Below are positions 39,671-58,630 of a stretch of 64,000 nucleotides of DNA, piece after piece. The notes below the pieces were generated by a model. The model ran no database searches. It saw only the letters and a list, made by a program, of their open reading frames with translations, and was not told the origin of the DNA. The first letter of the stretch is position 1. Each line of letters starts with the position of its first letter. Made by a program: the position numbers and the translations under genes. The stretch spans positions 8,060,001-8,124,000 of the forward strand of contig NZ_CP109473.1 of assembly GCF_036227405.1 (NCBI RefSeq), in the 5' to 3' direction. The DNA is from Streptomyces sp. NBC_01460 (lineage in GTDB: Bacteria > Actinomycetota > Actinomycetes > Streptomycetales > Streptomycetaceae).

Positions 39671-39714
39671 AGCATTCTCCTTGGCTACGGAATTCATGAT
39701 TTCTCGCTACGGGT

Positions 39715-40947
39715 TCAGTCGGCTTGCTGATATCGGGGGCTGGTCGCGTGCCACTCCTTGCTCCCGCCCATCCACGCCCACAGGCCGGCCAAATAACGGC
39801 GCAGCTGGGGTGATCCGGCCGTTGCCAGGACCGCGCAGTCGGCCTCGACGGTGTGCATGAGTTCGTCGTGGATGGCCGCTGTGCGGTCGACGGCCTCCTG
39901 GAGGGAACAGTTGTCCTCGGCGGCGATGAGGTTGGGCAGGTTGGTGTCTCCGGGGTCCTCCTTGGCCATCGAATAGACGTCGTTGAGCAGGACGTTGGCC
40001 ATGCCCGCGTAGAGATAGGTGCGGCGCACGGTGGGGTCGGCGAGCTCGGTGGCGGGTACTTCGTAGCCGCCCACCGAGTCGATCAGCGCCATGCACGGGT
40101 AGAAGGCGTTCTCGTAGCGGTGCAGGAGGTACTCCCACACCGCGGGCCTGCGCCCGCTGCCGCGCCACTGGGCCTCCTGCCCGTAGCCGACGAACATGAC
40201 GGCGAGCTCATGGCGCAGCCGGGCCACCTGGGTGGTGCTGGCGAACCGGGAGAGGTGACCGAGGCTGGACCGGAAGGCGCGGAGCACGGGCTGTCGCCGG
40301 ACGAGTTCCTCGAACTGCGCCTGATAGCGCGCGGGCAGGCGGACGGGGTCGATCACCGCATGGGCCATCGCGAGCCGTGCGCCGAGGAGCTCCGGCTCCG
40401 TGTCCTCGCCCTCGTCGACCCAGTGGTCGTCCACGGACCATTCCGCTAGCCCGCAGCGGGCCGCGGCCAGCAGCCGGTCGGGGTCGTCGCAGTCGGGGTG
40501 CGCGAGCATGAACAGGCGCCCGAACTGGTGTGAGCGGAGGCGTTCGAGGCGACCGGTGAAGATGCCGGTCTCCGCGGCCCATTCGACCAGGCGGTTGTTG
40601 ACCTCCTCGCCCAGAGCGGGGTCGTCCCGCACCGCGTCGGGGCAGTACAGGGCCGGGATCCGCACGGCCGTGGCCCGTCCCTCTGCGGACTGGTCCCCGC
40701 CCGTCGCCGGCGAGCCTTCCTCCTGAGGCTCCTTCCGTGCCGCCGCGGGCGGGGTGGGGGAGCTGAACAGGCGGGCCGCGGACGTGCCCAGGCCGGCCGG
40801 GCCGGCCAGGAGACGCTCCAGCACGAGGGGTGGGGGAGGGGGTGGTGAGGCCCGATCGACGGTTCGAGGCGGGGGAGTCGGCAGCCGGGCGGTCGGGGAC
40901 CCGTTCCGTGTCCACGGGGGGTCTTCGGCACCACTGGTCGAGGTCAT
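39715..40947 (-). CDS. 2-methylisoborneol synthase
   Basis: This 410-residue class I terpene cyclase converts 2-methyl-GPP to the earthy odorant 2-methylisoborneol. The acidic motif DDHWVDE (about 173-179) and the NSE triad in NDVYSMAKE (N322, S326, E330) bind Mg and diphosphate. Residues 1-95 are Pro/Ala-rich and disordered; in Streptomyces this N-terminal extension is the signal that loads the enzyme into the family 2B encapsulin shell, whose gene is immediately upstream. The start ATG 40947 has only a weak AAAGG site. The 200-bp gap to the encapsulin gene carries a short direct repeat but no terminator. Confidence 0.95.
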   Translation of the reverse strand: MTSTSGAEDPPWTRNGSPTARLPTPPPRTVDRASPPPPPPLVLERLLAGPAGLGTSAARLFSSPTPPAAARKEPQEEGSPATGGDQSAEGRATAVRIPALYCPDAVRDDPALGEEVNNRLVEWAAETGIFTGRLERLRSHQFGRLFMLAHPDCDDPDRLLAAARCGLAEWSVDDHWVDEGEDTEPELLGARLAMAHAVIDPVRLPARYQAQFEELVRRQPVLRAFRSSLGHLSRFASTTQVARLRHELAVMFVGYGQEAQWRGSGRRPAVWEYLLHRYENAFYPCMALIDSVGGYEVPATELADPTVRRTYLYAGMANVLLNDVYSMAKEDPGDTNLPNLIAAEDNCSLQEAVDRTAAIHDELMHTVEADCAVLATAGSPQLRRYLAGLWAWMGGSKEWHATSPRYQQAD

Positions 40948-41148
40948 GGCGAAGCGTGCCTTTCGGCTGGGAACGGGGAGGAACGCCTGCCGAGGCCCCG
41001 TCTGCGGGCATGCCGGCGGCAGGCGTCGGGAGGCAGGCGTCGGGTGCGTCCGCCGCACGGGGGCGCGGGCCCGGCCGGACGCGGGCGGCGCGAGGCCGGC
41101 CGCGCCCGGAACAAGGGTGATCGGCGGTCCGGTGCCTGGAGGCTCCGG

Positions 41149-42561
41149 TCAGCGCCAGCGGCCCACTTCGACGTTCTCCAGGACACCGAGAGCGTCGGGG
41201 ACGAGGACGGCGGCCGAGTAGTAGGCGGTGACGAGGTAGGAGATGAGCGCCTGCTCGTCGATGCCCATGAACCGTACGGACAGACTGGGCTCGATCTCGT
41301 CAGGGATCCCCGACTGCCGCAGGCCGATCACGCCCTGGTCGTCCTCACCCGTACGCATGCACAGGATCGAGGTCGTACGGGCATCGGTCACCGGGATCTT
41401 TCCGCACGGGTAGATCGGCACGCCGCGCCAGGCGGGAATGCGATGCCCGCCGACGTCCACCGGGTCCAGCGTCAGGCCACGTTTGTTGCACTCCCGGCCG
41501 AACGCGGCGATGGCGCGGGGATGGGCGAGGAAGAACTTGTTGCCACGCCTGCGTGAGAGCAGCTCGTCCATGTCGTCGGGGCTCGGCACCCCGTCGTGGG
41601 GCTGGAGGCGCTGCCCGTAGTCGCAGTTGCTGAGCAGCCCGAACTCCGGGTTGTTGACGAGCTCGTGTTCCTGACGCTCGCGCAGGGCCTCCAGCGTGAG
41701 GCGGAGCTGCTGCTCGGTCTGGTTCATCGGGTCGTTGTAGAGATCGGCGACGCGGCTGTGGATCTTCAGCACCGTCTGGGCGACGGAGAGTTCGTACTCG
41801 CGCGGCGAGGCTTCGTAGTCGACGTAGGTGTGCGGGATCCGGGACTCGCCCACGTGGCCGGCCGAGAGGTCGACCGCTGATTCGCCGTACGAGTTGGTGC
41901 GCTGCTGGGGGAGGGCCGCGACGGTCTCCAGATGCGTGCCCAACGACCGCGCGCGTTCCGCGAGGTTCTCGACGTCGCTCCGGGGCAGGACCAGCACGGT
42001 GCACGCCGTGGTGGCGCGGAAGGTGGACTCCCAGGCGGCCTCCGGCTCGGTCAGGCACTGTTCGCCGAAGTAAGCGCCGTCGGCCAGGACTTCGAGGACG
42101 GTCTCTCCGCCGTACGCCCCGGTGCCGATCTTTTCGACGCGGCCGTGCGCCAACAGGAACACACGGTCCTTCGAGTCTCCCGCGGCGGCCAGCACGGCGC
42201 CCTGGGCGAAGTCCACCTGCTCGCAACGGCCGGCCAGTTCGCCGAGCACCTCCTCGTCGGTGAATCCCCTGAGGGCGGGGAGCTCGCCCAGCTCCGCCGG
42301 GATGACGGAGACCCGCCCGCCGGTCTGGACGAAGGTCACCCTCCCGTCTCCCACGGCATAGCTGAGCCGCCGGTTCACCCGGTAGGTCCCACCCCGGACG
42401 TCCACCCAGGGAAGCATCCGGAGGAGCCACCGCGAGGAGGTCTCCTGCGTCTGCGGAACGGACTTCGATGTCGTCGCCAGGTTCCGTGCGGCGGATGTGG
42501 CCAGACTCTGCTGTCCGGTCGTCCGTGCCTGTACGGCTTCCCGGTCGGCTTCAACGGTCAT
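41149..42561 (-). CDS. Family 2B encapsulin shell protein with cyclic-nucleotide-binding domain
   Basis: A 470-residue HK97-fold shell subunit with a cyclic-nucleotide-binding domain (about 95-220; [24 protein letters not shown] and [33 protein letters not shown]) inserted between shell segments. The flanking parts ([69 protein letters not shown] and the C-terminal [26 protein letters not shown]) are typical of this family. Shells of this type enclose 2-MIB synthase in Streptomyces. It is the first gene of the odorant operon; its promoter region is 42562-42750. Confidence 0.94.
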
Positions 42562-42750: not shown

Positions 42751-43488
42751 TCACCCCCACGGTGCGCGGTGGTCGCGCCGCAGGGCACCCGGAGCGCGGC
42801 CCGCCCTGCGCAGCGGAAGGTCGCCGAAGGCCGCGTCGTTGGGTGTGAGTTCCACCGCCCGCGCGCTCTTGTACTCGTGGATCAGGATGGAGCGGTGCCG
42901 GTCCGTGGTGTTGCTGCTGGCTCGGTGAGCGGTGAGGCAGTGCAGGAACAGCACCGACCCGGGGCGGGTCCGCACCGGCACCACCTCGTCGTCCGGGGGC
43001 ACGGGCTCGTGGCGGAGATGGCTCCCCGGCCAGACGAGCGTCGCACCGGACTCCGCGTCCATGTCGTCCAGGTAGATCAGCGCCGTGACCAGCTCGGGCC
43101 GGGTGTGCCGGTCGGTGTCGAGGTCGCGGTGCCACCCCTCCTCGGCCGACAGCCGGGAGGGGCGCAGCCGTGCGAACCCCATGTGGAAGTTGATGTCCGG
43201 CCCCAGCAGCTCGTCCACGACGTCCAGGACCCGATCGTCGTGGATGAGCGCGTACCAGTCGTCCCCGGCCAGCGGCGTGTTGACGATCTTCCACACGGCG
43301 TACGGGTTGTAGGGGTCGAGGTGGTGAAGAGGCGTGGTGGACGCGGCGTGGACGTACAGCCGGGGATGCCCGGAGGCCGGAGGGTCGATGAGGCCGGAGA
43401 GCATCCTCTTCAGCGCCGCCACCTCGTCCTCGGAGTAGAGATCGGCCAGCAGGTATCCGTCGCGCTCGAAGGCTTCGCGGTTGTTCAT
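42751..43488 (-). CDS. PhyH-type Fe(II)/2-oxoglutarate dioxygenase, last gene of the RiPP operon
   Basis: A 245-residue phytanoyl-CoA dioxygenase-family oxygenase. Iron ligands are GWHRDLD (H120, D122) and the distal LTAHRA (H188), followed by an Arg for 2-oxoglutarate (about R197-R199). These enzymes hydroxylate, halogenate or desaturate small molecules or tethered substrates. GAGGAG precedes the ATG, 12 bp after the stop of the ABC-2 permease, so it belongs to the same transcription unit. It may be a third oxidative tailoring enzyme for the peptide, acting late. The C-terminal ~40 residues are Arg-rich and not part of the usual fold. Confidence 0.88.
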   Translation of the reverse strand: MNNREAFERDGYLLADLYSEDEVAALKRMLSGLIDPPASGHPRLYVHAASTTPLHHLDPYNPYAVWKIVNTPLAGDDWYALIHDDRVLDVVDELLGPDINFHMGFARLRPSRLSAEEGWHRDLDTDRHTRPELVTALIYLDDMDAESGATLVWPGSHLRHEPVPPDDEVVPVRTRPGSVLFLHCLTAHRASSNTTDRHRSILIHEYKSARAVELTPNDAAFGDLPLRRAGRAPGALRRDHRAPWG

Positions 43489-43500
43489 CGCGGGGGCTCC

Positions 43501-44307
43501 TCATGAACCGGTGCCGGCGTAGCGGTCGAGCCCGCCTCGCCACAGCAGGACAGCGGGCAGGAACAGCAGGGGGCCCGCGAGAGGCAGGGCCCAGACGAAC
43601 GGGGAGTCGGTCCTGCCGAGGATGTAGAGGCAGGGGAAGTAGCCGACGAAGGCGAACGGCACGACCGTGGAGAACACGGTCAGCAGCCACCTCGGATAGA
43701 AGCTCATCGGCAGCTGCGCGAAGCTGTCCAGGCGCCAGATCAGCATGCTCAGCATCGCGTCCTGGCGCAGCCAGAAGGACAGGGCCGTGACGGCGAGGTG
43801 CATGGCCGCGAACACCAGGGCTGAGCCGATCAGTGCCAGCGGGATGAAGACCAGGACCGGGCCGGAGACGTCCGCCCCGCTGACGTGGAGGGCGCCGAAC
43901 AGCATGCCTGTGCCGACGACGATCTCGATCCAGACGTCCGTGTCGACCTTCGAGAACAGAATCAGCGCCAACGGGCTCGTGGGACGGACCAGATAGTGGT
44001 CGAGCTCTCCGCTGCGCACCATGTCCGGGATGTCGAGCGTGCCGAAGAAGACGGTGTTCCACAGCGCACGGGCCACAGTGGTGAATCCCGTCAGCGCCGC
44101 CCACTCGGCGAGCGTCCAGCCGTGGATGCCGCCCGACGCGGAGAGGGCCAGCATGAGGACGGCCGCCCCGGACAGCGCCTGGACCAGAGCCCCGACGTTG
44201 GCGAGCGCGACCTCGCCCGGGTGCACGAGGTGGCTCCGGAAGTTCATCCGGGTGGCGAGCAGCGCGATGCCCGCGGACTTCCGCAGTCCGGCCAGGGCGT
44301 CAGCCAC
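43501..44307 (-). CDS. ABC-2 family transporter permease (second subunit)
   Basis: A 268-residue membrane protein with six hydrophobic segments and the ABC-2/PF06182 pattern (NVGALVQALSGAAVLMLALS; DIPDMVRSGELDHYLVRPTSPLALIL; PMSFYPRWLLTVFSTVVPFAFVGYFPCLYILGR). The phrase SGELDHYLVRP is characteristic of this exporter permease family. It overlaps the preceding permease gene by 8 bp (GTG 44307). With its partner permease and the ATPase it should form a heterodimeric exporter, probably for the mature peptide. Confidence 0.9.
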   Translation of the reverse strand: MADALAGLRKSAGIALLATRMNFRSHLVHPGEVALANVGALVQALSGAAVLMLALSASGGIHGWTLAEWAALTGFTTVARALWNTVFFGTLDIPDMVRSGELDHYLVRPTSPLALILFSKVDTDVWIEIVVGTGMLFGALHVSGADVSGPVLVFIPLALIGSALVFAAMHLAVTALSFWLRQDAMLSMLIWRLDSFAQLPMSFYPRWLLTVFSTVVPFAFVGYFPCLYILGRTDSPFVWALPLAGPLLFLPAVLLWRGGLDRYAGTGS

Positions 44308-45115
44308 CCGCGATCACCAGCTTCCTCAGGGCGGCGCGGGTGCACAGCACCGAGGCACCGGACAGCACGACCGCCCAGCAGCCTCCCAGGGCGATGATCC
44401 GGCCGTCGACGAAGGGATCCCGGACCAGGGTGCCGAGCGGGGTGTAGAAGCCGTGCACGAACGGGGTCCAGACCGCGACGTCACGCAGCCCCTGCGGGTA
44501 CAGCGAGATGGGCATCATCGAGCCGCCGAGCAGGAGGAGCAGGGCCTCGCGGACCTCGTTGAGGCCCTCGACACGGCGGATGAAGAACGCCGACAGGCCG
44601 ATGAGGTAGCTGAAGTCGAAGAGGACGACGAAGGCGATGACGGTCGTCAGCACCAGGCGGCCGACGTAGGCGGGATCGAGGGAGAAGGGGTACAGCAGCG
44701 CCCCTCCGACGAGCACCGCGGGCACGCCCACGAGGGCGGTGACGCCCAGCGTGCGGCCCAGGGCGGCGGAGAACCACTGGGACTGGAATCCGGTGGGCAG
44801 CAGCAGCTCGGTCACGATCCTCCCGTCCCTGATCCTCGCCTCCAACTGCCGGGCGAGCGCGAGGCCGGGGACGCAGAGCACCCAGACGGTCCCGGCCGCC
44901 GCGTAGAGCGTCGTCTGGTGCAGGGTCAGCCAGCCGGCCCGCGCGGAGCCGTCGCCACCCGCGTAGACGGCGCTCCACAGCGCCACCTGGAGGCCGATCA
45001 GCAGCAGGGCGCCGATCCCTTGCGCGAGCGCTCTCGTCCGGTAGTGGAAGGCCAGCTTCACCTGCATGCCGGCGACGGCCCGGTGGGTCTGCCACCCCCG
45101 GCGCACGGCGGCCAT
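44300..45115 (-). CDS. ABC-2 family transporter permease (first subunit)
   Basis: A 271-residue membrane protein with six predicted helices and the companion PF06182-like pattern (VKLAFHYRTRALAQGIGALLLIGLQVALWSAVYAG; IRDGRIVTELLLPTGFQSQWFSAALGRTLG; MMPISLYPQGLRDVAVWTPFVHGFYTPLGTLV). Its ATG overlaps the ATPase stop (TGATG at 45115). Paired ABC-2 subunits of this kind occur with a single ATPase in exporters of natural products. Location inside the RiPP operon suggests peptide export or self-protection. Confidence 0.9.
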   Translation of the reverse strand: MAAVRRGWQTHRAVAGMQVKLAFHYRTRALAQGIGALLLIGLQVALWSAVYAGGDGSARAGWLTLHQTTLYAAAGTVWVLCVPGLALARQLEARIRDGRIVTELLLPTGFQSQWFSAALGRTLGVTALVGVPAVLVGGALLYPFSLDPAYVGRLVLTTVIAFVVLFDFSYLIGLSAFFIRRVEGLNEVREALLLLLGGSMMPISLYPQGLRDVAVWTPFVHGFYTPLGTLVRDPFVDGRIIALGGCWAVVLSGASVLCTRAALRKLVIAGG

Positions 45116-46089
45116 CAGGCACCCTCCAGGTACATGCCCTTGATGAGGCTCTCCAGGCTCGGGGCCTCGATCCGTACGTCGTCGACCCGGGGGTCGGCGA
45201 ACAGCGCCGCGAGGAGTTCGCCGGGCAGCTCACCCTGGGTGAATCCGTAGGTGGTGATCATGCCGGTCCGTTCCTCGACGTGCGCGGGGCCGGGCAGCAG
45301 GGGCAGCCGGTGCCCCGCCGCGTGATGGATCACCAGCGTGCGGCGGCCGCCGCCGAGCGCGCGCAGTTCGTCGATCTTCCCGTCATGGACCAGCCGGCCG
45401 TCGTCGATCATGACGATCCGGTCGCAGATCGCCTCGACGTCCCGCAGGTCGTGGCTGGCTACGAGGACGGTCGGCGCGGTGTCCTGGCGGAGGTCGCGCA
45501 GGACGCCGCAGATGGCCTCCCGCGCGAAGATGTCGAGTCCGATGGTCGGCTCGTCGAGCAGCAGCAGGCGGGGAGCGTGGAGCAGCGTGCCCACCAGCTC
45601 CGCCCTGGTCCGGTTGCCGAGGGAGAGTTCGCGCACCGGGGTGTCGAGGTACCGGCCGATGCCGAGGCGGTCCACCAGGTGCTCGCGGCGGCGCCGGAAG
45701 ACGGCCGGCTCGATGTCGTAGACCCGCCGGAGCAGCTCGTAGGAGTCCTTCACGGGCAGGTCCCACCAGAGACTGGCCCGCTGTGCCGCGAGATACCCCA
45801 GCCGGGCGGAGAGACGCCGGCGGTCGGCGTGCGGATCGCGGCCGTCCACCGTGACCCGGCCCGTGGTCGGGGTCAGGATGCCGGCGATGAGCTTCATGGT
45901 GGTGGACTTGCCGGCTCCGTTGAGCCCGATGTAGCCGACCGCCTCGCCCTCGTCGACCCGCAGGTCGACGCCCTTGAGCGCCTCCACCTCGCTGCTGACC
46001 CTGCGGAACAGGCGGCCGAGGCGTCCGCCGGTCTCCGGGGGCCGCCGAACCCGGTAGGAGCGGTGCACGGATTCCAGGTGGACCCTCAC
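45115..46089 (-). CDS. ABC transporter ATP-binding protein (exporter)
   Basis: A 324-residue cytoplasmic ATPase. Walker A is GLNGAGKST, the signature is LSLGNRTRAEL (an LSxGN variant), Walker B is LLLLDEPTIGLD and the switch His lies in VASHDL. The C-terminal ~85 residues form the extra domain seen in ABC-2 exporters. The GTG start overlaps the aldo/keto reductase stop (GTGA), and the stop overlaps the permease start. It energises the two ABC-2 permeases downstream. Confidence 0.93.
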   Translation of the reverse strand: MRVHLESVHRSYRVRRPPETGGRLGRLFRRVSSEVEALKGVDLRVDEGEAVGYIGLNGAGKSTTMKLIAGILTPTTGRVTVDGRDPHADRRRLSARLGYLAAQRASLWWDLPVKDSYELLRRVYDIEPAVFRRRREHLVDRLGIGRYLDTPVRELSLGNRTRAELVGTLLHAPRLLLLDEPTIGLDIFAREAICGVLRDLRQDTAPTVLVASHDLRDVEAICDRIVMIDDGRLVHDGKIDELRALGGGRRTLVIHHAAGHRLPLLPGPAHVEERTGMITTYGFTQGELPGELLAALFADPRVDDVRIEAPSLESLIKGMYLEGA

Positions 46090-46874
46090 GAGACCACGTC
46101 CGTCCGCGCGCCGTCGGCGATGCGGTCGATCGCCGCCACTTCGGCGGGGGCCAGGGAGAAATTGCGGACCGTGAGGTTCCCGGCGAGGTGGGCGGGCGAG
46201 ACCGCCTTCGCCACGGTGGGGACCCCGTGCTCGAGGTGCCAGCGCAGCAGGACCTGGTGGACGCTGCGGCCGTGACGCTCGGCGGTCGCCCGCAGCACGG
46301 GGTGCCCGAGGTCGTTCTCACTGAACGGGCTGTGTCCTTGCACGACGATCCCGAGCGCGGCGTGGTGCGGGGCGAGAGCGGGGTCGAAGTACCGGGGGCC
46401 GAAGGCGACCTGGTTCACGGCGGGGACGACGCCGGAACGGGCGACGAGGTCGTCCACCTGGGCCGGCCGGAAGTTGCTCACCCCGATGTCACGGACCAGG
46501 CCCGCCTCCCGCGCCTCGATGAACCGTCGCCACACGGCCAGGGACCCCTCGGCGTCCAACGGTCCGTGCATCAGCCAGAGGTCCACGTACTCCACCCCGA
46601 GCAGCTCCAGGCTGCGCGCCAGCGTCTCGCGTTCACGTCCGGCGTCCTCCTCCGGGAACTTGGTGACGATCAGCAGTTCGTCACGCCGGATGCCGGAGGC
46701 GCGGATCCCCGCGCCGACCGCCTGTTCGTTGCGGTATCCGGTGGCGGTGTCGACACAGCGGTATCCGAGGTCGAGGGCCTCCCGCACGCCACGGATCGCC
46801 TCCCCGCCCCACATCTGCCAGGTGCCCAGGCTGACCGGGGGGAGACCGCCGGCGGGCAGGGTCCGCCCGCTCAC
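46086..46874 (-). CDS. Aldo/keto reductase in the RiPP operon
   Basis: A 262-residue NADPH-dependent AKR. The catalytic tetrad is visible: YRCVDTATGYRNE (Asp, Tyr), LIVTKFPEED (Lys) and LWLMHGPLD (His), and the cofactor helix region is VSNFRPAQVDDL. The product resembles 2,5-diketo-gluconate reductase-like AKRs that reduce aldehydes and ketones. The GTG at 46874 overlaps the JmjC stop (GTGA). In this setting it might reduce a carbonyl produced by one of the oxygenases, or detoxify a by-product; a role on the peptide is inference. Confidence 0.85.
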   Translation of the reverse strand: MSGRTLPAGGLPPVSLGTWQMWGGEAIRGVREALDLGYRCVDTATGYRNEQAVGAGIRASGIRRDELLIVTKFPEEDAGRERETLARSLELLGVEYVDLWLMHGPLDAEGSLAVWRRFIEAREAGLVRDIGVSNFRPAQVDDLVARSGVVPAVNQVAFGPRYFDPALAPHHAALGIVVQGHSPFSENDLGHPVLRATAERHGRSVHQVLLRWHLEHGVPTVAKAVSPAHLAGNLTVRNFSLAPAEVAAIDRIADGARTDVVS

Positions 46875-47659
46875 CGGGCACGGCTCCCGTCGTGGCCGCC
46901 GGTCGCGTCGTCGAGCAGGTCGAACGTCGCGCCGACCGCCGTGAGCAGTTCGTGGTTCTCCCGGTCCCCGAGGACCTCGAAGTACCTCTTCGCGAAGCCG
47001 AGGTTGGACCGGTTGACGAAGTTGGCGGTGAGGGAGACGGTGCCGGTGGGATTCCGCACCTCGTGGGCCCATCCGCTGGGGGTCACCACGATGTCTCCCG
47101 GTTCCTGGACCAGCGTGACGCCCTCTTCGTCCTCGGCCCCCGGAGCGCCGGCACAGCCAGGGGGCAGCAGACGCCACGCCTCAGCCCGCCAGGGTGGGTG
47201 GAAGCTCCACTCCTTGCGCCCCGAACAGAGCAGGTTCCACGCGGAGCTCGCCATCGTGTCGACGTGCAGGGGGGAGCTGGTGTCGGCCCCGCCGATCATC
47301 AGCCACACCCAGTCCGGGCGTACGTCCGCGGGCAGCGCCAGAAGCCAGTTCAGCCGGCGGATGTCGCGCGGGACGAGGTTCCACAGCCCCGGTTCGAACT
47401 CCGAGACCAGCTGGTCGCGGAGGTACAGCCCCCGTGGACGTCCCGACCGCAGCTCGTCGAGGATCTCCCGAAACCGCACGGTCACCGCCTGCCGCCGAGA
47501 GTCCTCGGCCATTACCGGACGGTCGTCGAGCTCCCGCAGCCGTGCCTCATGCAGGGCGGCGTACACCGGCCACTCCCGGCCGGCTCCGCGCAGGACGACG
47601 GGCCGGTCGCCGCAGATCCGGGCCGCCGTGACCGAGTCGTCAGCCGTTGAAGTAGTCAA
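46871..47659 (-). CDS. JmjC-domain 2-oxoglutarate oxygenase (second JmjC of the cluster)
   Basis: A 262-residue cupin-fold Fe(II) oxygenase of the FIH/JMJD6-like group. The iron triad is HVD (H132, D134) in SSPLHVDTMASSAWNLLCSGRKEWSFHPP and H199 in SGWAHEVRNPTGTVSL. Such enzymes hydroxylate Asn, Asp, Lys or Arg side chains of proteins and some RiPP precursors. The start is TTG 47659, overlapping the radical SAM gene end by 20 bp; no better start is present, and coupled translation is likely. The substrate is presumed to be the precursor peptide. Confidence 0.85.
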   Translation of the reverse strand: MTTSTADDSVTAARICGDRPVVLRGAGREWPVYAALHEARLRELDDRPVMAEDSRRQAVTVRFREILDELRSGRPRGLYLRDQLVSEFEPGLWNLVPRDIRRLNWLLALPADVRPDWVWLMIGGADTSSPLHVDTMASSAWNLLCSGRKEWSFHPPWRAEAWRLLPPGCAGAPGAEDEEGVTLVQEPGDIVVTPSGWAHEVRNPTGTVSLTANFVNRSNLGFAKRYFEVLGDRENHELLTAVGATFDLLDDATGGHDGSRAR

Positions 47660-49364
47660 CGCGGCTGCCCCCCTCCGCCTGGCGGGCCCAGTCCTCCCGG
47701 TGCCCCCGCAGCGCGTGGGGTCCGAAGGCGGCCTCGATGTCGGCCCGCGCGCGCAGGCCCTGCACGAGGTTCTCCCGCTCGGACATGCAGCGCGCCTGCT
47801 TCGCCGCCACCTTCTCGCGTACGGTCCCGGCCGGATCCGACGCCCGGAAGGGCGCCTCCGGGACGGTCACCGTGCACATCGGAGCCGCCCAGCAGGTCCG
47901 GCAGGAACCGGCCTGCACGGCGTCGCGGAACATGCCGAGCTGCTCGACCCCTGCCAGCGGGTCGACGCCCCGGTCGGTGTGGCCGACAGCGAAGTCCGGG
48001 GACTGGTACTCGTACGAGGAGTAGAGCGTGCCGTCCGAGCCGAGCACGAGGTACTCGTTCCCCGGGACGAGCTGGACGCCCAGCAGATGTCCGAGCTGCG
48101 GACCGCCGTCCCGCTCGGGCTGGTTCAGGGCGCGGTGGAAGGACCGGTGCAGGAAGCCGTGGCTGAACGCGAAGCGGTAGCGGCCCGACTGCTCCCGCTC
48201 GTCGTACGGCAGCCGGTGGGACGCCACGAAGAGGTCCCAGACCCTTCGCTGCTCGGCGAACATCTGCTGGAAGTCCGCGTACGACTCCTCACCGCCTGGC
48301 AGCAGCAGGTCGAAGTCCCAGGCCAGCGCCCTCAGCGCGGCCGGCCACTCGCTGAAGTACCGGTACAGCGTGCCCTCGTCGAGCGGCGCCGACAGGACGC
48401 AGATGATCGCGACGCGCGAGGCGAAGTAGTCGGGCCAGTTCTCCGCGAGCCAGTCGGCCCGCTCCCGCACGCGGTCATGGGTCCCCTTCCCGCGCCGGTC
48501 GATCCGGTAGCGGTCGTGGTTGGGACCGTCGACGGAGATGTTGAGGTAGATGTCGTGCTCGACCAGGAAGCCGACGATCTCCGGTGTCAGCAGCATGCCG
48601 TTGGTGTTGACCTGGACGATGAGGTTCTCCAGCCGGGAGCCGACCTCCCTCTTCCGCTCCTCCAGGGCCAGCACGGACTCCTTCAGCTGGTCGAACGCCA
48701 TCAACGGCTCACCCCCGAAGAAGTAGACCGCCCGTTGTGCGGGCTCCAGCCGCTCCTCACCGGTGACGAACAGGTCGATCGCGGCCCTCACCATGTCCTT
48801 CTCCGGGGAGGCGGTCCGGTGCGGGCGCGTCCCCGGGTAGGCACCGCCGTAATAGCAGTACGTGCACCGGATGTTGCACTGCTCCGTGGGATTGAGCATG
48901 AGCACCCGGACCCGCGGCTGCTCGAGGCGCGCGTCGGGCGGCAGATCCGGGAACTGCCAGCCGGGACCGTCGAAGGGCATGATCAGGGAGGCGAGTCCGT
49001 CGATCTCGGCCTCGGAGACACTCGCCCCGTCCGGTGCTCCCGGCCCCTCGGGCGCCGACACGCCTGACGGGTCCCAGCGAGCGGCCCGCAGCAGCACCGC
49101 CTGACGAGAGGTGATCTCGTGAACCCTGCCGGTGGCCGGCGTGTACAGATGGAAACGCCCGGGCCTTCGGTCGCTCTCCCACATCCTGTACAGCCACGTG
49201 AGTCCTCGATCCTGACGGATCGACACCTCGTTCTCCCCCTGATTGACGCCGGTGACGGACCCCGCGAGACTCCGGACATCTGGCCGGTCCGTCCGCTCGA
49301 TCAGCTCGATCTGCCATGCGTGCAGGCGGTGGGCCCGCTGCTGTTCTGCCGTGTCCGTACTCAT
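47640..49364 (-). CDS. Radical SAM/SPASM peptide-modifying enzyme
   Basis: A 574-residue radical SAM protein. The [4Fe-4S] motif CNIRCTYCYYGG puts cysteines at 163, 167 and 170; FFGGEPL, VQVNTNGMLL and NISVDGP are the usual core landmarks. The C-terminal SPASM-like part has CRTCWAAPMC (488, 491, 497) and a further Cys at 526, enough for at least one auxiliary cluster. SPASM enzymes of this size install Cβ-linked cyclophanes, thioethers or other C-C bonds in RiPPs. The ~150 N-terminal residues may serve for leader binding, but no clear RRE motif is evident. ATG 49364 overlaps the arginase stop (ATGA). Confidence 0.92.
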   Translation of the reverse strand: MSTDTAEQQRAHRLHAWQIELIERTDRPDVRSLAGSVTGVNQGENEVSIRQDRGLTWLYRMWESDRRPGRFHLYTPATGRVHEITSRQAVLLRAARWDPSGVSAPEGPGAPDGASVSEAEIDGLASLIMPFDGPGWQFPDLPPDARLEQPRVRVLMLNPTEQCNIRCTYCYYGGAYPGTRPHRTASPEKDMVRAAIDLFVTGEERLEPAQRAVYFFGGEPLMAFDQLKESVLALEERKREVGSRLENLIVQVNTNGMLLTPEIVGFLVEHDIYLNISVDGPNHDRYRIDRRGKGTHDRVRERADWLAENWPDYFASRVAIICVLSAPLDEGTLYRYFSEWPAALRALAWDFDLLLPGGEESYADFQQMFAEQRRVWDLFVASHRLPYDEREQSGRYRFAFSHGFLHRSFHRALNQPERDGGPQLGHLLGVQLVPGNEYLVLGSDGTLYSSYEYQSPDFAVGHTDRGVDPLAGVEQLGMFRDAVQAGSCRTCWAAPMCTVTVPEAPFRASDPAGTVREKVAAKQARCMSERENLVQGLRARADIEAAFGPHALRGHREDWARQAEGGSRVDYFNG

Positions 49365-50350
49365 CTGCCCCTCGCTCGTCCCTGGTGGTCGTCCAGCAGT
49401 GCCCGCAGGCAGCTCATGACGAGCGCGGAGATCGTCGCGCTCGTCGCGCGGTTCTCACGGTCGTCCTGAAGGGCCTCCACGATGTCGACCGCGACCACGC
49501 GCCGCGTACGGCAGACGTGCTCGACGGCGGCCAGCAGCTCCCGCAGGCGGTAGCCGCCCGCCTCCGGGTGCCCTGTTGCCGGGAATTCCGTGGGGTCGAT
49601 CACGTCGAGGTCGACCGACAGATACGTCGGTTCGTCGTGCGGCTCATCCAGGTCGTCCGTGTCGTCCACGTGGTCCGCCGGTTCCGGGAAGCCGTACGCG
49701 TAGGCGCAGCGCAGAGCCGGCGGCAGCGGACCGCAGGAGGCCGGCAGATAGGTCCGTACGCCGTACAGCTCTGCTCCGGCCACCACGCCCGCCCCGAGCA
49801 GATGGCCGAGGAAATCGCCGTGGGTGATGTCCGTGAGAGCGGGCATCGGCCTGATGCTGAAGTCGCAGTGGGCGTCGAAGCACACCACGCGCACCGGTCC
49901 GTGCACCGCCGCCAGCCCCGTCGCCACCGGAGCGGAGAGGCTGTGGTCCCCTCCGACGAACAAGGGGATCGTCCCCACCCCGGCCAGGCGTTCCGTGAGA
50001 CCGGTCAGCGCCCGGTAGTACGCGGCCCTGCCCACCCGGGGATCGATCGGCACCGCCCCGAGGTCGCCGAGGTCGAACACCCGACGGCCGGCGAGCACCG
50101 GCCCCCCGGTCAGCGGATCGATCAGTCCGCCCAGCGCCCCGTCGTGAGTGACGCTCCAGTCATGGCCAGGGCTCAGCTTCCGGAAGATCTCCGGCCCGTG
50201 GCGCTGCCCCGGCACACCCGTCACCCCGGCGTCGAACGGCAGCCCCATGAGCACCGCGTCGGCGGCCAGGGACCCTGACACCACGGAGTCGACATCGGCC
50301 GCGGGCAGCCCCAGCGCACCCGCACCGGCCCGGATCGAGGCGGACGTCAC
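49361..50350 (-). CDS. Arginase-family hydrolase, probable peptide arginase
   Basis: A 329-residue ureohydrolase with all Mn ligands visible: GGDHS (H136), FDAHCDF (D159, H161, D163) and SVDLDVIDP (D247, D249). Free-arginine arginases and agmatinases share these, but within a RiPP operon the closest known role is that of OspR-like peptide arginases, which convert Arg to ornithine in a precursor. The GTG at 50350 overlaps the JmjC stop (GTGA) and the stop overlaps the radical SAM start. Its GQRHGPEIFRKLS segment is like that of agmatinase-type members. The assignment to peptide substrate is inference from context. Confidence 0.85.
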   Translation of the reverse strand: MTSASIRAGAGALGLPAADVDSVVSGSLAADAVLMGLPFDAGVTGVPGQRHGPEIFRKLSPGHDWSVTHDGALGGLIDPLTGGPVLAGRRVFDLGDLGAVPIDPRVGRAAYYRALTGLTERLAGVGTIPLFVGGDHSLSAPVATGLAAVHGPVRVVCFDAHCDFSIRPMPALTDITHGDFLGHLLGAGVVAGAELYGVRTYLPASCGPLPPALRCAYAYGFPEPADHVDDTDDLDEPHDEPTYLSVDLDVIDPTEFPATGHPEAGGYRLRELLAAVEHVCRTRRVVAVDIVEALQDDRENRATSATISALVMSCLRALLDDHQGRARGR

Positions 50351-51558
50351 GACACCCGCCACCCCTCGGTCCGCTCCGCCCGGCGGTCGGTCACGGTGAC
50401 CAGACGCACCCTCAGCAACGCGGAGACCAGAGCGGACACGGATGCCTCGGAGGCGCCCGACCGTTCGGCCAGCTCCCCGATGCCGGCACGACGCAGCCGG
50501 AGAAGCGTCTCGCACGCCGCGCGGTGCACGGCGGGCAGGACGAACTCCCGGTCCGCGGCGGTGAGCACCACGCTCTCGCCCCTGACGTCGAGCAGTGGGG
50601 GCAGCACGGTCGCCAGCTCGACGACCGCCTCGGCGGACGGCCGCGCCCTCAGCACGTCCCAGGGCAGGCCCGCGATGTCCCGCCCACCGCTCCGGCGCCG
50701 CTCGGCGTCGAAGAAGTCGGGCAGCGTCAAGCCCTTCGCCTCGGTCACGAACGCCGTGACGAGCCGCTCGGCCTGCGCCCGCTGCTCCTCCGGAGTCCCC
50801 GCGCGGGACAGGCTCTCCCGCACGTCGACGTTGTCGAGCGCCCGGTACGCCACCCAGCGCAGCCAGTCGTAACCGGTGCGCCGGGTGAAGGCGAAGGTCA
50901 GGTGCAGGCTGGATTCGCCGCCCCCGCGCACGGTGTGCCACCAGCCGCGGGGCACGTGGATCACGTCGCCCGGATCCAGCGTCCTCTCGAACAGCACCGT
51001 CTCCGGGCAACGGGCCGGGTCGCTGTCCCCGTACTCCGGAAGCGGATGTTCCTCCGACGGCCCGTGCACCTGCCAGCTCTTGGTGCCGTGCACCTGGAGG
51101 ACGAAGGTGTCCACCTCGTCGAAGTGGCTGGCGAAGGCCTGCGCGTCGTCGAAGGTGACGAAGAGATTGCAGGAGGCGGTCTCGCCGACCATCCGCATGA
51201 CATCGTCGGTCGCGGCGCGGACGGCGGGGTGGATACGGTCGAGGGAGTCGACGACGAGGCTGGCGCCGTTCCGCATGAGCGAGAACGTCTTGGCCAGGTC
51301 GACGACGCGATGTCCTGCTCGCATGACGGTGTACTCGTGCTCGGGCAGGGATCTGCCCCCGGTGCACAGCTTCAGCTCCGCGGGCTCCACGCGACCCCGG
51401 GAGAGGATCTCGTTCAGGTCGTGCCAGGAGAAGTGCTCCCGCACCAGCTGCGGGTCGAGCTTGCGGAGCACCACGTCGGTGCTGAGGTGTTTCACCACGA
51501 AGTCGGGGCCGAATGCGGCCGCCAGCGCCCGGCCGAGTCCCGAGGCGGATCCCGTCAT
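50347..51558 (-). CDS. ROXA/MINA53-like JmjC oxygenase (first JmjC of the cluster)
   Basis: A 403-residue Fe(II)/2-oxoglutarate oxygenase with the architecture of ribosomal oxygenases: JmjC domain (about 95-225; iron triad H145, D147 in SHFDEVDTFVLQVHGTKSWQVHGP and H208 in PRGWWHTV), helical dimerisation region (about 235-310) and a C-terminal winged helix (about 330-400). ROXA hydroxylates Arg in ribosomal protein L16, so arginine hydroxylation of the precursor is a natural hypothesis. The start ATG 51558 has GAGGGAG 11 nt upstream. It is the first enzyme gene after the attenuator-like hairpin downstream of the precursor. Confidence 0.87.
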   Translation of the reverse strand: MTGSASGLGRALAAAFGPDFVVKHLSTDVVLRKLDPQLVREHFSWHDLNEILSRGRVEPAELKLCTGGRSLPEHEYTVMRAGHRVVDLAKTFSLMRNGASLVVDSLDRIHPAVRAATDDVMRMVGETASCNLFVTFDDAQAFASHFDEVDTFVLQVHGTKSWQVHGPSEEHPLPEYGDSDPARCPETVLFERTLDPGDVIHVPRGWWHTVRGGGESSLHLTFAFTRRTGYDWLRWVAYRALDNVDVRESLSRAGTPEEQRAQAERLVTAFVTEAKGLTLPDFFDAERRRSGGRDIAGLPWDVLRARPSAEAVVELATVLPPLLDVRGESVVLTAADREFVLPAVHRAACETLLRLRRAGIGELAERSGASEASVSALVSALLRVRLVTVTDRRAERTEGWRVS

Positions 51559-51608
51559 GATTCCGATGTCTCCCTCGTCGCCGCCATAATTCCCGAAAAG
51601 AGGCCGCG

Positions 51609-51661
51609 AAAAGGGGTCCCGCGTTTGCCGGTGCCTTGCGGAGCGGTAGGCGCGGGACCCC
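51609..51661 (-). terminator. Attenuator-like terminator between the precursor and the RiPP enzymes
   Basis: On the minus strand an 11-bp perfect stem (51661-51651 with 51623-51613) with a 27-nt loop is followed at once by TTTT (51612-51609). It starts 7 bp after the precursor stop. Partial read-through would give more precursor than enzyme transcript, as in many RiPP operons. Confidence 0.75.
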
Positions 51662-51667
51662 GGTTCG

Positions 51668-51829
51668 CTACTTCGCCGAGTCGCCGAACATCTGGGTGAA
51701 GTCCGGAACACCAGCGCGGTTGTGGGTCTTGGCGAAGGTTGCCCGTGCCCTCTCGGCCACGGGGGAAACCTTTACCTCCACCTCGGGGAATTCCTGCTCG
51801 GGAGTGTTCCGTGCAGTGTTGTCAGCCAT
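51668..51829 (-). CDS. Putative RiPP precursor peptide (53 residues)
   Basis: This ORF was found by reading the gap between the GNAT and the first JmjC gene. It begins MADNTARNTPEQEFPEVEV and ends AGVPDFTQMFGDSAK. GGAGG lies 5 nt before the ATG, and a promoter and a terminator flank it. Residues 1-26 are acidic and leader-like; the C-terminal half holds aromatic residues F32, H36, F44 and F48 and a single downstream Arg (R38) in the context KTHNRAG. F-x-K (32-34), H-x-R (36-38), F-x-Q (44-46) and F-x-D (48-50) are possible three-residue cyclophane sites for the SPASM enzyme; R38 is a candidate for arginase and JmjC action. It has no Cys or Trp. The function is inferred from position and composition. 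Confidence 0.75.
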   Translation of the reverse strand: MADNTARNTPEQEFPEVEVKVSPVAERARATFAKTHNRAGVPDFTQMFGDSAK

Positions 51830-51867
51830 GTTCGCCTCCAAAGCGACGTTGCCGGCAGTTCTCGGTG

Positions 51868-51897
51868 AGAGTACGACAGGCTTTGCCGGGCGAACAA
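51868..51897 (-). promoter_or_regulatory. Promoter of the putative precursor gene
   Basis: TTGTTC (51897-51892), an 18-bp spacer and TACTCT (51873-51868) fit a principal-sigma promoter and end 38 bp before the precursor ATG. The region up to the GNAT stop is AT-rich (51899-51960). Confidence 0.55.
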
Positions 51898-51960
51898 GAG
51901 GTGATATTCGGACGGTCGATTCCCGGATGCGGTCATGAAGTCATATCGAAAGAATATGTT

Positions 51961-52503
51961 CTAGTCGAATGGCTCGTCGTTCCACTGCGGGACGGTCACT
52001 TCTCCGGACGTCCAGTCCCGGCGCAGGACCGCGTACCCGACCGCGTCGTGAACCGCCCCGCCCGACGACGGCCACCCGTCCCGGTAGTGCGCTTCCTTGA
52101 CGTAGCCGCAGCGCCTGAGTACGCGTCGCATCGCGAGGTTGTCCTGACGTGTGTGGGCCTCGATGCGGCGTGCGTCCGGAAACTCCTCGAAGACGTACCT
52201 GGTCAGCCAGGTCACGGCCAGAGTGCCGATCCCGCGACCGCGGTCCTCGGCCCGAAGCCGCAGGTCGAACAGGGGTGTCTGGTCCCCCAGGTCCATGAGC
52301 CGGAGCAGGCCTGCGGCCGCCCCGCCGGCGACGATCCAGAAGGTCCTGTTCCCCGCGCTCTCGAAGCGGTCTTCCACGATCCACCCGCCCACGGTTTCGC
52401 GGTCCAGCTCGCTGGTGCCGTGGAAAGGCCAGTTCTCGCTGGTCAGAAAGCGGATGAGGGGCTCGGTTTCGGTGGTGGCGAGGCGCCGGAAGATAATATC
52501 CAC
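51961..52503 (-). CDS. GNAT acyltransferase upstream of the precursor
   Basis: A 180-residue GCN5-type N-acyltransferase. The acyl-CoA loop is LRAEDRGRGIGTLAVTWLTRYVFE and the downstream EAHTRQDNLAMRRVLRRCGYVKEAHYRDGWP segment is typical of RimJ/RimL- or AAC(6')-like members. GTG 52503 has AAGGT at a normal distance; the frame stays open upstream. It is on the same strand, 131 bp before the precursor. Peptide arginases and GNATs occur together in selidamide RiPPs, where the GNAT acylates ornithine or lysine, so a similar partnership is possible here. A general resistance acetyltransferase is the main alternative. Confidence 0.82.
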   Translation of the reverse strand: MDIIFRRLATTETEPLIRFLTSENWPFHGTSELDRETVGGWIVEDRFESAGNRTFWIVAGGAAAGLLRLMDLGDQTPLFDLRLRAEDRGRGIGTLAVTWLTRYVFEEFPDARRIEAHTRQDNLAMRRVLRRCGYVKEAHYRDGWPSSGGAVHDAVGYAVLRRDWTSGEVTVPQWNDEPFD

Positions 52504-52988: not shown

Positions 52989-53783
52989 TCAGCGGGGGAC
53001 ACGTTCACCGAAGAGCCTCCCGGCCGTGGGCACCCGAGGAAGCGGGGGAGCGGGGACAGCCGGGAGGGTGGGTGTGTGACCGTCCGGGCCCGACCAGGGC
53101 GCGACGGGCTCGCCCACATGCTGGGCTGCGGTGCGCCACGCGGCAGTGACGGCGCGGTGCGCGGCCTCGCTCGCCGCCTCCACCTCGGCCGGCAGGCGAA
53201 GGGGTGCGCCGACGTGCACGTGGAGCCGGGGGCGTCGGACGGGGGCGGTGAGGATTCCAGCCAGCTGCTTGAGCCCGCTGCCGGAGGCAAGGCGCCTGGC
53301 CCCCGCCTGGCCCACCGGGATGAGGCACGCCCCGGAAGCGGCGGCCAGCCGAGCGGGACCGCTGCGGAAGGCCTCCGGGGCCGCTTCTGAGGCATCACGG
53401 CGTGGAGGGATGCGCCCCTCGCCGTAGATGAGCACGTGCCGTCCTGCTGCCAGTGCGGCGGCGGCGGTCTCCAGGGCTTCGGCGGCACGGCTGGTCCGGC
53501 GGTGGACGGGGACATGGCCGTCGCGGTTCAGGAGATGGCTCAGGACGGGAACGCGCCACAGGCCTGCTGTGGCGAGGACGACGGGCTCGATGTCCATGCG
53601 TCGCAGAGCGGCAAGGACGACGCCGGGGTCCGCCAGTGAGGTGTGGTTGGCGACGAGGATGCCGGGGGCGGGGACGGCGGTCAGGTCCGCCGAGGTCGTC
53701 AGGCGTCCGAACGCGGGGACGAGGGCTGTGGCCATCTGGCTGAGCACGGGACTCCTGAGATCGGGCTTCGAGGTGAGGCTCAT
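52989..53783 (-). CDS. 1-acyl-sn-glycerol-3-phosphate acyltransferase-like protein (PlsC family)
   Basis: A 264-residue lysophospholipid acyltransferase-fold protein. Block 1 is NHTSLADP (NHxxxxD), block 2 is HVPVHRR, block 3 is YGEGRIPPRRD (usually EGTRS) and block 4 is CLIPVGQAG. It transfers an acyl chain to a glycerophosphate or related alcohol at the membrane. The changed block 3 suggests a substrate different from standard lysophosphatidate, as found for acyltransferases linked to specialised lipids. ATG 53783 lacks a clear ribosome site. It is monocistronic and probably unrelated to the RiPP locus, although a lipidating role cannot be excluded. Confidence 0.85.
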   Translation of the reverse strand: MSLTSKPDLRSPVLSQMATALVPAFGRLTTSADLTAVPAPGILVANHTSLADPGVVLAALRRMDIEPVVLATAGLWRVPVLSHLLNRDGHVPVHRRTSRAAEALETAAAALAAGRHVLIYGEGRIPPRRDASEAAPEAFRSGPARLAAASGACLIPVGQAGARRLASGSGLKQLAGILTAPVRRPRLHVHVGAPLRLPAEVEAASEAAHRAVTAAWRTAAQHVGEPVAPWSGPDGHTPTLPAVPAPPLPRVPTAGRLFGERVPR

Positions 53784-54197
53784 CGTCACGCGGTTGCCGT
53801 GCCGGTGGCCTGAGCTTCCGTACTCACCTCGGTAGGTGGGTGAGGGCCGCACGTGCTCAGCACAGCATGGCTACGGGCTGGTCAGGGCCGCCGGGACGCC
53901 TGCCCTCGTCATCGCCGAACGCGGCGTCGGGCCGGACCCGTTGTCCTGGTGCCTACCCTTGGCGCGGCCTTCACCGGCTTCCGCGGCCTGTACGGCTTCG
54001 CCGGACAGCTGGGCGACCGTCCTGGCGCCCGCTGGACGCCCCGGTGTCTGCCCAGGGGCAACGCGGACGGTGCATCACGCGCAGTGGCGCCGACCGCGCG
54101 CCCGCTCCCGGGGCTGGACAGCTGTGCGGTCGGCGTGCCGTTTCACCGGGCCAGGGACCCGGTGGGCGTCCCCCTCGTGGCCGGGGCCGTCCTCCGG
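53784..54197. other. Intergenic region, no confident gene
   Basis: This 414-bp stretch holds the plsC-like promoter and the 3' side of the AHSA1 gene. One minus-strand frame near 53890-54020 reads AQLSGEAVQAAEAGEGRAKG then a stop, and could be a gene remnant, but I cannot assign it. Confidence 0.4.
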
Positions 54198-58470: not shown

Positions 58471-58630
58471 GACGTTCCCTTCGAGGGACATGACGAGGAC
58501 GTGAAATGGCATGCGCATGACATTCAGTGAGGCGGGTCGATGCCTGGTCGAATGATGGAAGGGGGTGACGCGGTGTGGGGGACTTACTTCACTACGTGAT
58601 TTAAGAAGTGAACGATTGGCCTGTCAAGGG

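What the first reader, a model, noticed from the sequence alone, without database searches (positions are those of the whole stretch)
42751..52503. Probable undescribed RiPP cluster: radical SAM/SPASM, peptide arginase, two JmjC oxygenases, PhyH, GNAT
Nine genes on the minus strand form a nearly gapless operon: JmjC-1 (GTGA) arginase (ATGA) radical SAM-SPASM (20-bp overlap) JmjC-2 (GTGA) AKR (GTGA) ABC ATPase (TGATG) two ABC-2 permeases, then PhyH. They are headed by a 53-residue ORF with its own promoter and attenuator, with a GNAT ahead of it. Known RiPP chemistry for the single families: SPASM enzymes crosslink, OspR-type arginases make ornithine, and selidamide GNATs acylate ornithine or lysine. 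I know of no characterised RiPP class that joins a SPASM enzyme, an arginase and two JmjC enzymes. The combination predicts a crosslinked, ornithine-containing, hydroxylated and possibly acylated peptide.
Basis: partly seen in the sequence, partly recalled or inferred. Interest (0 to 1): 0.95.

Follow-up and report, generated by a model that had tools for sequence, protein, structure and literature searches.

The report
Orphan ribosomal peptide cluster in Streptomyces
A compact set of eleven Streptomyces genes, found whole in three other genomes, encodes one short peptide and an unusual set of enzymes that very probably modify it into an unknown natural product.

Summary
Nine overlapping or near-touching minus-strand genes follow a conserved 53-residue ORF and a hairpin, with a GNAT gene ahead. 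The same eleven genes occur in Kitasatospora papulosa NRRL B-16504, Streptomyces sp. ISL-43 and Streptomyces sp. SBT349; in SBT349 the GNAT sits at the other end, so it belongs to the unit. The short ORF is under protein-level selection (pN/pS 0.28), and its downstream hairpin shows compensatory changes. Very probably a RiPP cluster.

Corrections: the arginase is PF00491 (KgrD kind), not OspR-type PF12640. The radical SAM enzyme keeps only the Cys set that I recall as SPASM AuxII. There are three Fe/2OG oxygenases. Biphenomycin already joins a rSAM, an arginase and a JmjC Orn hydroxylase; enteropeptin uses a PF00491 arginase. JmjC-1 (NO66-like, RRE-like C-terminus) has Streptomyces cousins: the 30 loci returned for one cousin's JmjC all carry a short peptide and an AKR. 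The unit is rare: 3 of 392 genus genomes, own included. Nine literature searches listed no paper describing this combination. Product, core boundary and modified residues are unknown.

The parts
51964..52503 (-). GNAT acetyltransferase (start set by alignment with 3 relatives, GTG); proposed self-protection or peptide capping
   Evidence: Acetyltransf_3 E 3.5e-13; present in 4 of 4 loci, at the opposite end of the operon in L008
51868..51897 (-). promoter-like TTGTTC-18-TACTCT ahead of the precursor gene
   Evidence: read by eye from the four-way upstream alignment; not found by the strict scan
51668..51829 (-). 53-aa precursor-like ORF (MADNTARNTPEQEFPEVEVKVSPVAERARATFAKTHNRAGVPDFTQMFGDSAK)
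   Evidence: 96, 77, 72% identical in 3 other genomes, 31 of 53 columns invariant; pN/pS 0.28, 0.19 for residues 26-53, other frames 1.29 and 2.69; single match in own genome
51609..51661 (-). hairpin plus short T run between precursor and enzyme genes; proposed partial terminator
   Evidence: 7 of 18 pairs with a change on both sides, 91.4% of cells paired, 0-2 such pairs when slid
50347..51558 (-). JmjC-1, NO66/ROX-like Fe(II)/2OG oxygenase with RRE-like C-terminal domain (residues 311-390)
   Evidence: JmjC_2 2e-21; NO66 nearest solved structure by sequence; H145, D147, H208 in 4 of 4; model confident only for about 311-390, strands then helices
49361..50350 (-). arginase-family enzyme (PF00491), metal motifs GGDHS, DAHCD, DLDVID
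   Evidence: PF00491 1.6e-39; motifs in 4 of 4
47640..49364 (-). radical SAM peptide maturase-like enzyme; CxxxCxxC plus C488, C491, C497, C526
   Evidence: Radical_SAM 2.2e-17; best NCBIfam CcpM 9.1e-40, below its cut-off; Cys invariant in 4 of 4
46871..47659 (-). JmjC-2, Cupin_8/JMJD6-like Fe(II)/2OG oxygenase
   Evidence: Cupin_8 1.7e-11; JMJD6 nearest solved by sequence; HxD...H in 4 of 4
46086..46874 (-). aldo-keto reductase
   Evidence: Aldo_ket_red 1.7e-35; Asp/Tyr/Lys/His tetrad (recalled) visible in 4 of 4 (alignment)
45115..46089 (-). ABC transporter ATPase
   Evidence: ABC_tran 1.5e-26
44300..45115 (-). membrane permease 1 of the ABC exporter (by position)
   Evidence: no Pfam hit; 82-84% identical in 3 relatives
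43501..44307 (-). ABC-2 permease 2
   Evidence: ABC2_membrane_6 1.2e-36
42751..43488 (-). PhyH-family Fe(II)/2OG oxygenase
   Evidence: PhyH 3.9e-19; conserved HRD and distal His in 4 of 4, read from the alignment (the automatic pattern there matched another place)

Best explanation
The eleven genes are an orphan RiPP cluster. The 53-aa ORF is the precursor. The hairpin behind it probably lets many precursor transcripts end there while some read on into the enzymes. Residues about 1-24 act as leader: a variable start, then EFPEVxVxVS, which looks like a strand that an RRE domain could bind. The RRE-like C-terminal domain of JmjC-1, and perhaps the N-terminus of the rSAM, would hold it. The conserved part (about 26-53) is then modified. 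The arginase turns Arg into Orn (R38 or R27/R29, all invariant). JmjC-2 (JMJD6-like) probably hydroxylates that Orn or a Lys, as BipG does Orn. JmjC-1 hydroxylates another residue, for which H36 or the Asx pair 43/50 are my guesses. PhyH adds a third oxidation and the AKR reduces or oxidises a carbonyl/alcohol. The rSAM makes a crosslink or another radical change. The ABC system exports the product and the GNAT acetylates it, for self-protection or capping. No protease is among the eleven genes, so a host protease must cut the leader. Shown: gene content, synteny, selection on the ORF, hairpin covariation, intact catalytic motifs. Inferred: every reaction, order, core boundary, product.
For: Whole unit in 4 of 4 loci, flanking genes examined differ. 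GNAT relocated but retained in L008. Precursor: pN/pS 0.28 and 11 invariant residues in a row, 26-36. Hairpin covariation. rSAM: the best NCBIfam profiles include peptide maturases CcpM 9.1e-40, PapB, lachnocin and RumMC, all 25 shown below their cut-offs; best solved match 5wgg 9.2e-19 (that this is CteB is recalled). JmjC cousins: a short peptide ORF in 30 of 30 loci returned for the L025 JmjC, repeat peptides in 9 of 9 (L070-L078) and another family in 4 of 4 (L080-L083). RRE-like order of elements in JmjC-1, as PMC12710340 describes for PF08007 proteins (passage). Precedents: PF00491 arginase KgrD in enteropeptin (PMC12703449, parts 1-3 of 5 read); JmjC Orn hydroxylase BipG in biphenomycin (PMC12707348, section 9 read).
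Against: No reaction, product or core is shown. The RRE-like reading rests on one low-confidence model (mean pLDDT 50.5; only about 311-390 good); ROX proteins carry winged-helix domains anyway (recalled), and the sequence of this region matches, weakly, DNA-binding HTH families and no RRE family (HTH_IclR 0.001). The rSAM N-terminus has no Pfam hit even at E up to 5. No protease and no known precursor family. The precursors of the JmjC cousins are not detectably homologous to this one (best E 0.15). In the hairpin test the number of further pair types is no higher than in shuffles (330 of 500 reach it). Only four loci, closely related, were found.
Confidence: 0.72

Rival explanations
1. The enzymes make a small non-peptide metabolite from free arginine or ornithine (hydroxy-ornithine type), and the short ORF is a regulatory or structural small protein.
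For: Solved PF00491 relatives act on free arginine, agmatine or guanidino acids by name; the nearest are guanidinopropionase, arginase and proclavaminate amidinohydrolase. PhyH resembles ectoine hydroxylase.
Against: The rSAM is closest to peptide maturases; JmjC cousins sit with short peptides in 30 of 30 loci; the arginase has Ser, in 4 of 4, where canonical arginases have the Asn of DAHxDxN (role of that Asn recalled); the ORF is conserved up to its C-terminus. No carrier protein, ligase or NRPS hit among the eleven genes.
Confidence: 0.1
2. The peptide is a scaffold: a small molecule is built or modified on its C-terminus and released, as in peptide-scaffold (pearlin-like) pathways (recalled).
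For: No protease in the unit; strong conservation of the C-terminal half, including QMFG and K53; three oxidations plus AKR would be much for one short core.
Against: No peptide-aminoacyl-tRNA ligase or other C-terminal ligase hit among the eleven genes.
Confidence: 0.1
3. It is a divergent member of the biphenomycin or enteropeptin families.
For: Shared arginase plus radical SAM logic; JmjC Orn hydroxylase in biphenomycin (PMC12707348, PMC12257519); PF00491 arginase in enteropeptin (PMC12703449).
Against: No MNIO, B12-rSAM, FHAFRF motif or PF12640 arginase as in biphenomycin; no Cys in the precursor, which the enteropeptin thiomorpholine needs.
Confidence: 0.03

Closest known systems
Biphenomycin / pbs clusters (PMC12707348, PMC12257519)
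   Same: One precursor type; radical SAM enzyme, arginase and a JmjC/cupin hydroxylase acting on the new ornithine; known from Streptomyces and Peribacillus.
   Different: Theirs: B12-dependent rSAM, MNIO plus partner, PF12640-type arginase (PbsE, per PMC12703449), TldD protease, MFS exporter, FHAFRF motif. Here: SPASM-like rSAM with an AuxII-type Cys set, PF00491 arginase, NO66-like and JMJD6-like JmjC, PhyH, AKR, ABC exporter, GNAT, no protease.
Enteropeptins (described in PMC12703449; original paper not seen)
   Same: PF00491 arginase (KgrD) acting on a peptide after another modification.
   Different: There a Cys-derived thiomorpholine and N-methylation; this precursor has no Cys, and there are three Fe/2OG oxygenases.
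Landornamide/OspR-type peptide arginases (PMC12703449)
   Same: Arg to Orn in a RiPP core is the predicted reaction.
   Different: [quoted passage not shown] this enzyme is PF00491.
CcpM / PapB / CteB-type SPASM maturases
   Same: Best profile and solved-structure matches of the rSAM by sequence (the name CteB is recalled).
   Different: All 25 NCBIfam hits shown are below cut-off (136.9 against 500 bits for CcpM); only the AuxII-type Cys are kept; no Cys in the precursor.
NO66-like JmjC proteins with RRE-like domain in RiPP-like contexts (PMC12710340, passage) and Streptomyces cousins L040-L069
   Same: PF08007-type oxygenase next to a short ORF; in these cousins with an AKR too. [quoted passage not shown] it was not tested in the cousins.
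   Different: Cousins were seen with peptide, JmjC and AKR (1.5 kb flanks) and unrelated precursors; here rSAM, arginase, two more oxygenases and a transporter are added.

Membership tests
RiPP biosynthetic cluster (general) | short genetically encoded, conserved precursor next to modifying enzymes | tested here: met
RiPP biosynthetic cluster (general) | maturation of that peptide by the enzymes | not testable with these tools
   needs expression and mass spectrometry
RiPP biosynthetic cluster (general) | RRE or other leader-binding domain | tested here: inconclusive
   RRE-like element order at JmjC-1 311-390; by sequence that region matches only HTH-type families weakly, and the rSAM N-terminus matches nothing; the rSAM model could not be run
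SPASM radical SAM maturases | radical SAM CxxxCxxC core | tested here: met
SPASM radical SAM maturases | full seven-Cys SPASM domain | tested here: not met
   no SPASM profile hit; only C488, C491, C497, C526; the seven-Cys definition and assignment to AuxII are recalled
OspR-type peptide arginase (PF12640) | PF12640 profile and its motifs | tested here: not met
   PF00491 only
KgrD-type PF00491 peptide arginase | PF00491 with intact metal site, encoded with a rSAM and a precursor | tested here: met
KgrD-type PF00491 peptide arginase | activity on peptidyl Arg | not testable with these tools
   needs assay
Biphenomycin family | MNIO, B12-rSAM, FHAFRF precursor motif | tested here: not met
   no such hit among the eleven genes, motif absent from the ORF
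Enteropeptin family | Cys in the core for the thiomorpholine; methyltransferase | tested here: not met
   no Cys in 4 of 4 precursors; no methyltransferase hit in the unit
Selidamides | GNAT that attaches fatty acyl groups to Orn/Lys | tested here: inconclusive
   GNAT family yes, the three solved matches are acetyltransferases, one named RimJ/RimL; no comparison with selidamide enzymes made
NO66-like JmjC with short-peptide neighbour | PF08007 with an adjacent short peptide ORF | tested here: met
   cousins 30 of 30

The most novel reading that the evidence does not exclude
A new RiPP class in which one Cys-free precursor is matured by a radical SAM enzyme that has lost the first SPASM cluster, a PF00491 peptide arginase and three different Fe/2OG oxygenases. 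The NO66-like one carries its own RRE and is the hallmark of a much wider, largely undescribed Streptomyces family of JmjC-made peptides.
Probability: 0.55. Interest if true: 0.8.

Novelty: new variant of a known kind. Interest (0 to 1): 0.62.

Why it matters
If right, this is a compact, ready-to-express pathway joining five metalloenzymes on one short peptide. It would test a radical SAM enzyme without the AuxI-type cysteines, a further PF00491 peptide arginase, and NO66-like JmjC enzymes as peptide hydroxylases with a built-in leader-binding domain. The cousin loci suggest that NO66-like JmjC enzymes mark many short-peptide operons in Streptomyces, so one worked-out example could open a larger set.

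Tried and rejected
Considered: shared ancestry of this precursor with the peptides of the JmjC cousins (FAKTHNRAGVP against IxAARxRxxxP by eye, noted). A profile of 30 cousin peptides did not match the four precursors (best E 0.15 in a database of four), so this was dropped. A plasmid home: tblastn of the rSAM found 169 records but 0 with one place covering 80% of the query. A wider spread of the whole cluster: class sample, own only of 394 at E 1e-60; family sample, 2 of 297 (own and one already known) at 1e-45. The genome-contig scan used two short patterns, one at the very N-terminus, and is weak for distant kin (14 stretches, 3 relatives). The encapsulin/terpene genes as part of the unit were rejected: encapsulin matches lie elsewhere in the two relatives checked. 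The plsC gene (52989-53852) was rejected: no strong match in the fetched flanks of the relatives. NCBIfam on the short ORFs: no family. The first tblastn printed nothing because the file names did not match; it was redone. A structure of the rSAM was never accepted by the busy machine. Fold searches of the JmjC-1 model could not run. Xia et al. 2025 (J Am Chem Soc 147:26693, 2OG dioxygenase macrocyclisation in RiPPs), seen only as a citation, may bear on the JmjC enzymes; it could not be read.
Full report
Observation. The short ORF is 51668-51829 (-), 53 residues. The nine genes 42751-51558 (-) form one run with overlaps of 1 to 20 bp and one gap of 12 bp. Pfam assigns JmjC_2 (PF08007), Arginase (PF00491), Radical_SAM, Cupin_8/JmjC, Aldo_ket_red, ABC_tran, an ABC-2 permease (PF06182), PhyH and a GNAT. 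Permease 1 and the short ORF have no family hit.

Is it a unit? The rSAM protein was sought in 295 genomes of the genus: 3 match, own included. The arginase in 392 gave the same 3. In 4 of 4 loci all eleven genes are present. Identities of the three relatives to the window, over the aligned stretches, are 62-72% (GNAT), 72-96% (precursor), 78-86% (JmjC-1), 78-84% (arginase), 80-85% (rSAM), 71-77% (JmjC-2), 76-79% (AKR), 81-88% (ABC), 82-84% and 84-91% (permeases), 80-88% (PhyH). In SBT349 the GNAT lies behind PhyH instead of ahead of the precursor, which argues that it belongs to the pathway. The flanking genes examined differ (five genes in the relatives; the window), and the window's encapsulin neighbour has its matches on other contigs in the two relatives checked. 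Rarity with full conservation suggests spread as a cassette; this is inference.

The short ORF. Four precursors align without gaps, 31 of 53 columns invariant, including ERARATFAKTH (26-36), R38, V41-P42, QMFG (46-49) and K53. pN/pS is 0.28 overall, 0.46 for residues 1-12, 0.24 for 13-25 and 0.19 for 26-53. The other two frames give 1.29 and 2.69 and contain stops in all four. So it is a real protein with a variable start, a conserved EFPEVxVxVS stretch and a strongly conserved second half. It has one match in its genome, itself. Positions 43 and 50 are both Asp in three and both Asn in SBT349.

The hairpin. Between the ORF and JmjC-1 each of the four loci has a long stem in the same place. 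Of 18 named pairs, 7 show changes on both sides and 91.4% of cells pair; 4 of 500 shuffles reach the number of double changes and slid controls reach at most 2; the number of further pair types does not exceed the shuffles (330 of 500 reach it). With four sequences, and a structure drawn from them, this is good but not overwhelming evidence. The T run is short (TTTT in the window, GTTT or ATTT in the others), which fits a partial terminator that would favour precursor over enzyme transcripts; that role is inferred.

Enzymes. The catalytic motifs looked at are intact in 4 of 4; for PhyH the automatic pattern matched elsewhere, and HRD plus the distal His were read from the alignment. JmjC-1 is nearest by sequence to NO66 among solved structures. 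Its model is poor overall (mean pLDDT 50.5), but residues about 311-390 are confident and run four strands, helix, a three-residue strand, helix, helix, strand. That is compatible with the strict RRE order given in PMC12710340 (passages read), which itself reports RRE-like folds fused to PF08007 JmjC domains; by sequence the region matches only HTH-type families, weakly. JmjC-2 is nearest to JMJD6, a lysyl hydroxylase. PhyH resembles ectoine hydroxylase. The arginase is PF00491, nearest to guanidinopropionase; OspR-type peptide arginases are PF12640, while KgrD of enteropeptin is PF00491 (PMC12703449, parts 1-3 of 5 read). The rSAM has the CxxxCxxC core and, of the SPASM cysteines, only C488, C491, C497 and C526. 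By my recollection of the anaerobic sulfatase maturase these are the AuxII ligands and the AuxI set is missing. Its best profiles are mostly peptide maturases (CcpM 9.1e-40), the 25 shown all below their cut-offs.

The JmjC cousins. JmjC-1 was sought in 296 genomes of the phylum (13 match at 1e-20, own included). The two best matches outside the cluster (L024, L025) stand in operons with a short ORF and an AKR. Of the other eleven loci fetched from that search only L036 was read for short ORFs. With the L025 JmjC as query, 94 of 315 genus genomes match at E 1e-30. The 30 loci that the tool returned, from the best-ranked matches (they include L024 and L025 again, as L069 and L040), carry, 30 of 30, a 38-49 aa ORF of one family just upstream and an AKR match downstream. 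The same filter finds 0 of 30 on the antisense strand, 0 of 600 shuffled regions and 0 of 150 other windows; the filter was written after seeing examples. Of 15 weaker loci that I chose by hand, 9 of 9 in L070-L078 have a repeat peptide (EGPADGGAAGTPGVHDGGADGG-like), as does the window's own genome (L036); 4 of 4 in L080-L083 have another peptide family; L084 has a third; and L079 has no clear one (judged by eye). So 44 of these 45 loci carry a short peptide ORF; most of the remaining matches were not looked at. A tree of 57 rows places the cluster JmjC as its own long-branched group on the side of the AKR-linked and L080-L083 types, with a warning that long branches may meet falsely (left out before the tree: L033, L041 and L069; one Streptomyces row, L030, was labelled with the other actinobacteria and fell among the repeat-peptide type). 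The precursors are not detectably related. This supports a peptide substrate for JmjC-1 without showing its residue.

What is known. Nine literature searches of the held open-access library listed no paper that describes this combination; subscription papers are mostly not held. Closest are biphenomycin (PMC12707348, abstract, passages and section 9; PMC12257519, abstract and passages), with an arginase, a JmjC hydroxylation of the new ornithine and a B12-rSAM biaryl link, and enteropeptin. In nitrilobacillin-type clusters a predicted arginase replaces the 2OG-HExxH enzyme where that is absent (PMC13060819, passages). Xia et al. 2025 on 2OG-dioxygenase macrocyclisation was seen only as a citation.

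Verdict. A real, conserved, very probably RiPP-type cluster with an unusual enzyme set; membership in the named RiPP families tested (biphenomycin, enteropeptin) fails on tested features. Every chemical step is inferred.

Noticed in passing
L040-L069 (L040 and L069 are the loci L025 and L024): A Streptomyces family of three neighbouring genes: 38-49 aa peptide ending in ...SDGGSTGRTDGND-like sequence, NO66-like JmjC oxygenase, aldo-keto reductase (30 of 30 loci returned). NCBIfam has no family for the two peptides tested.
   Followed up: partly
L036:8994-11574 (own genome, contig 1 at about 8.56 Mb) and L070-L078: Repeat peptide (PGVHDGGADGG / EGPADGGAAG units) directly ahead of an NO66-like JmjC; in L036 a Suc_Fer-like protein follows. 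Looks like a multi-core precursor (9 of 9 hand-chosen loci plus own genome).
   Followed up: partly
L080-L083: Another short peptide family (...GLLVAVEELTAVHDRYDSLRSDNAGSSGDAPWPGGDGNL...) ahead of an NO66-like JmjC, 4 of 4 hand-chosen loci.
   Followed up: partly
window 38813-42561 (-): Methyltransferase, terpene synthase (Terpene_syn_C_2) and cNMP-binding SrpI-like encapsulin shell gene in a row; looks like an encapsulin-linked terpene locus, unrelated to the finding.
   Followed up: partly
window 42017-42525 (+): Rfam match Sernc350 (137.5 bits), antisense to the encapsulin gene.
   Followed up: no
window 55811-58518 (-): Two neighbouring ORFs with ricin-type lectin domains, one with a clear GH16 match and one with a GH18 match below its cut-off.
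   Followed up: no
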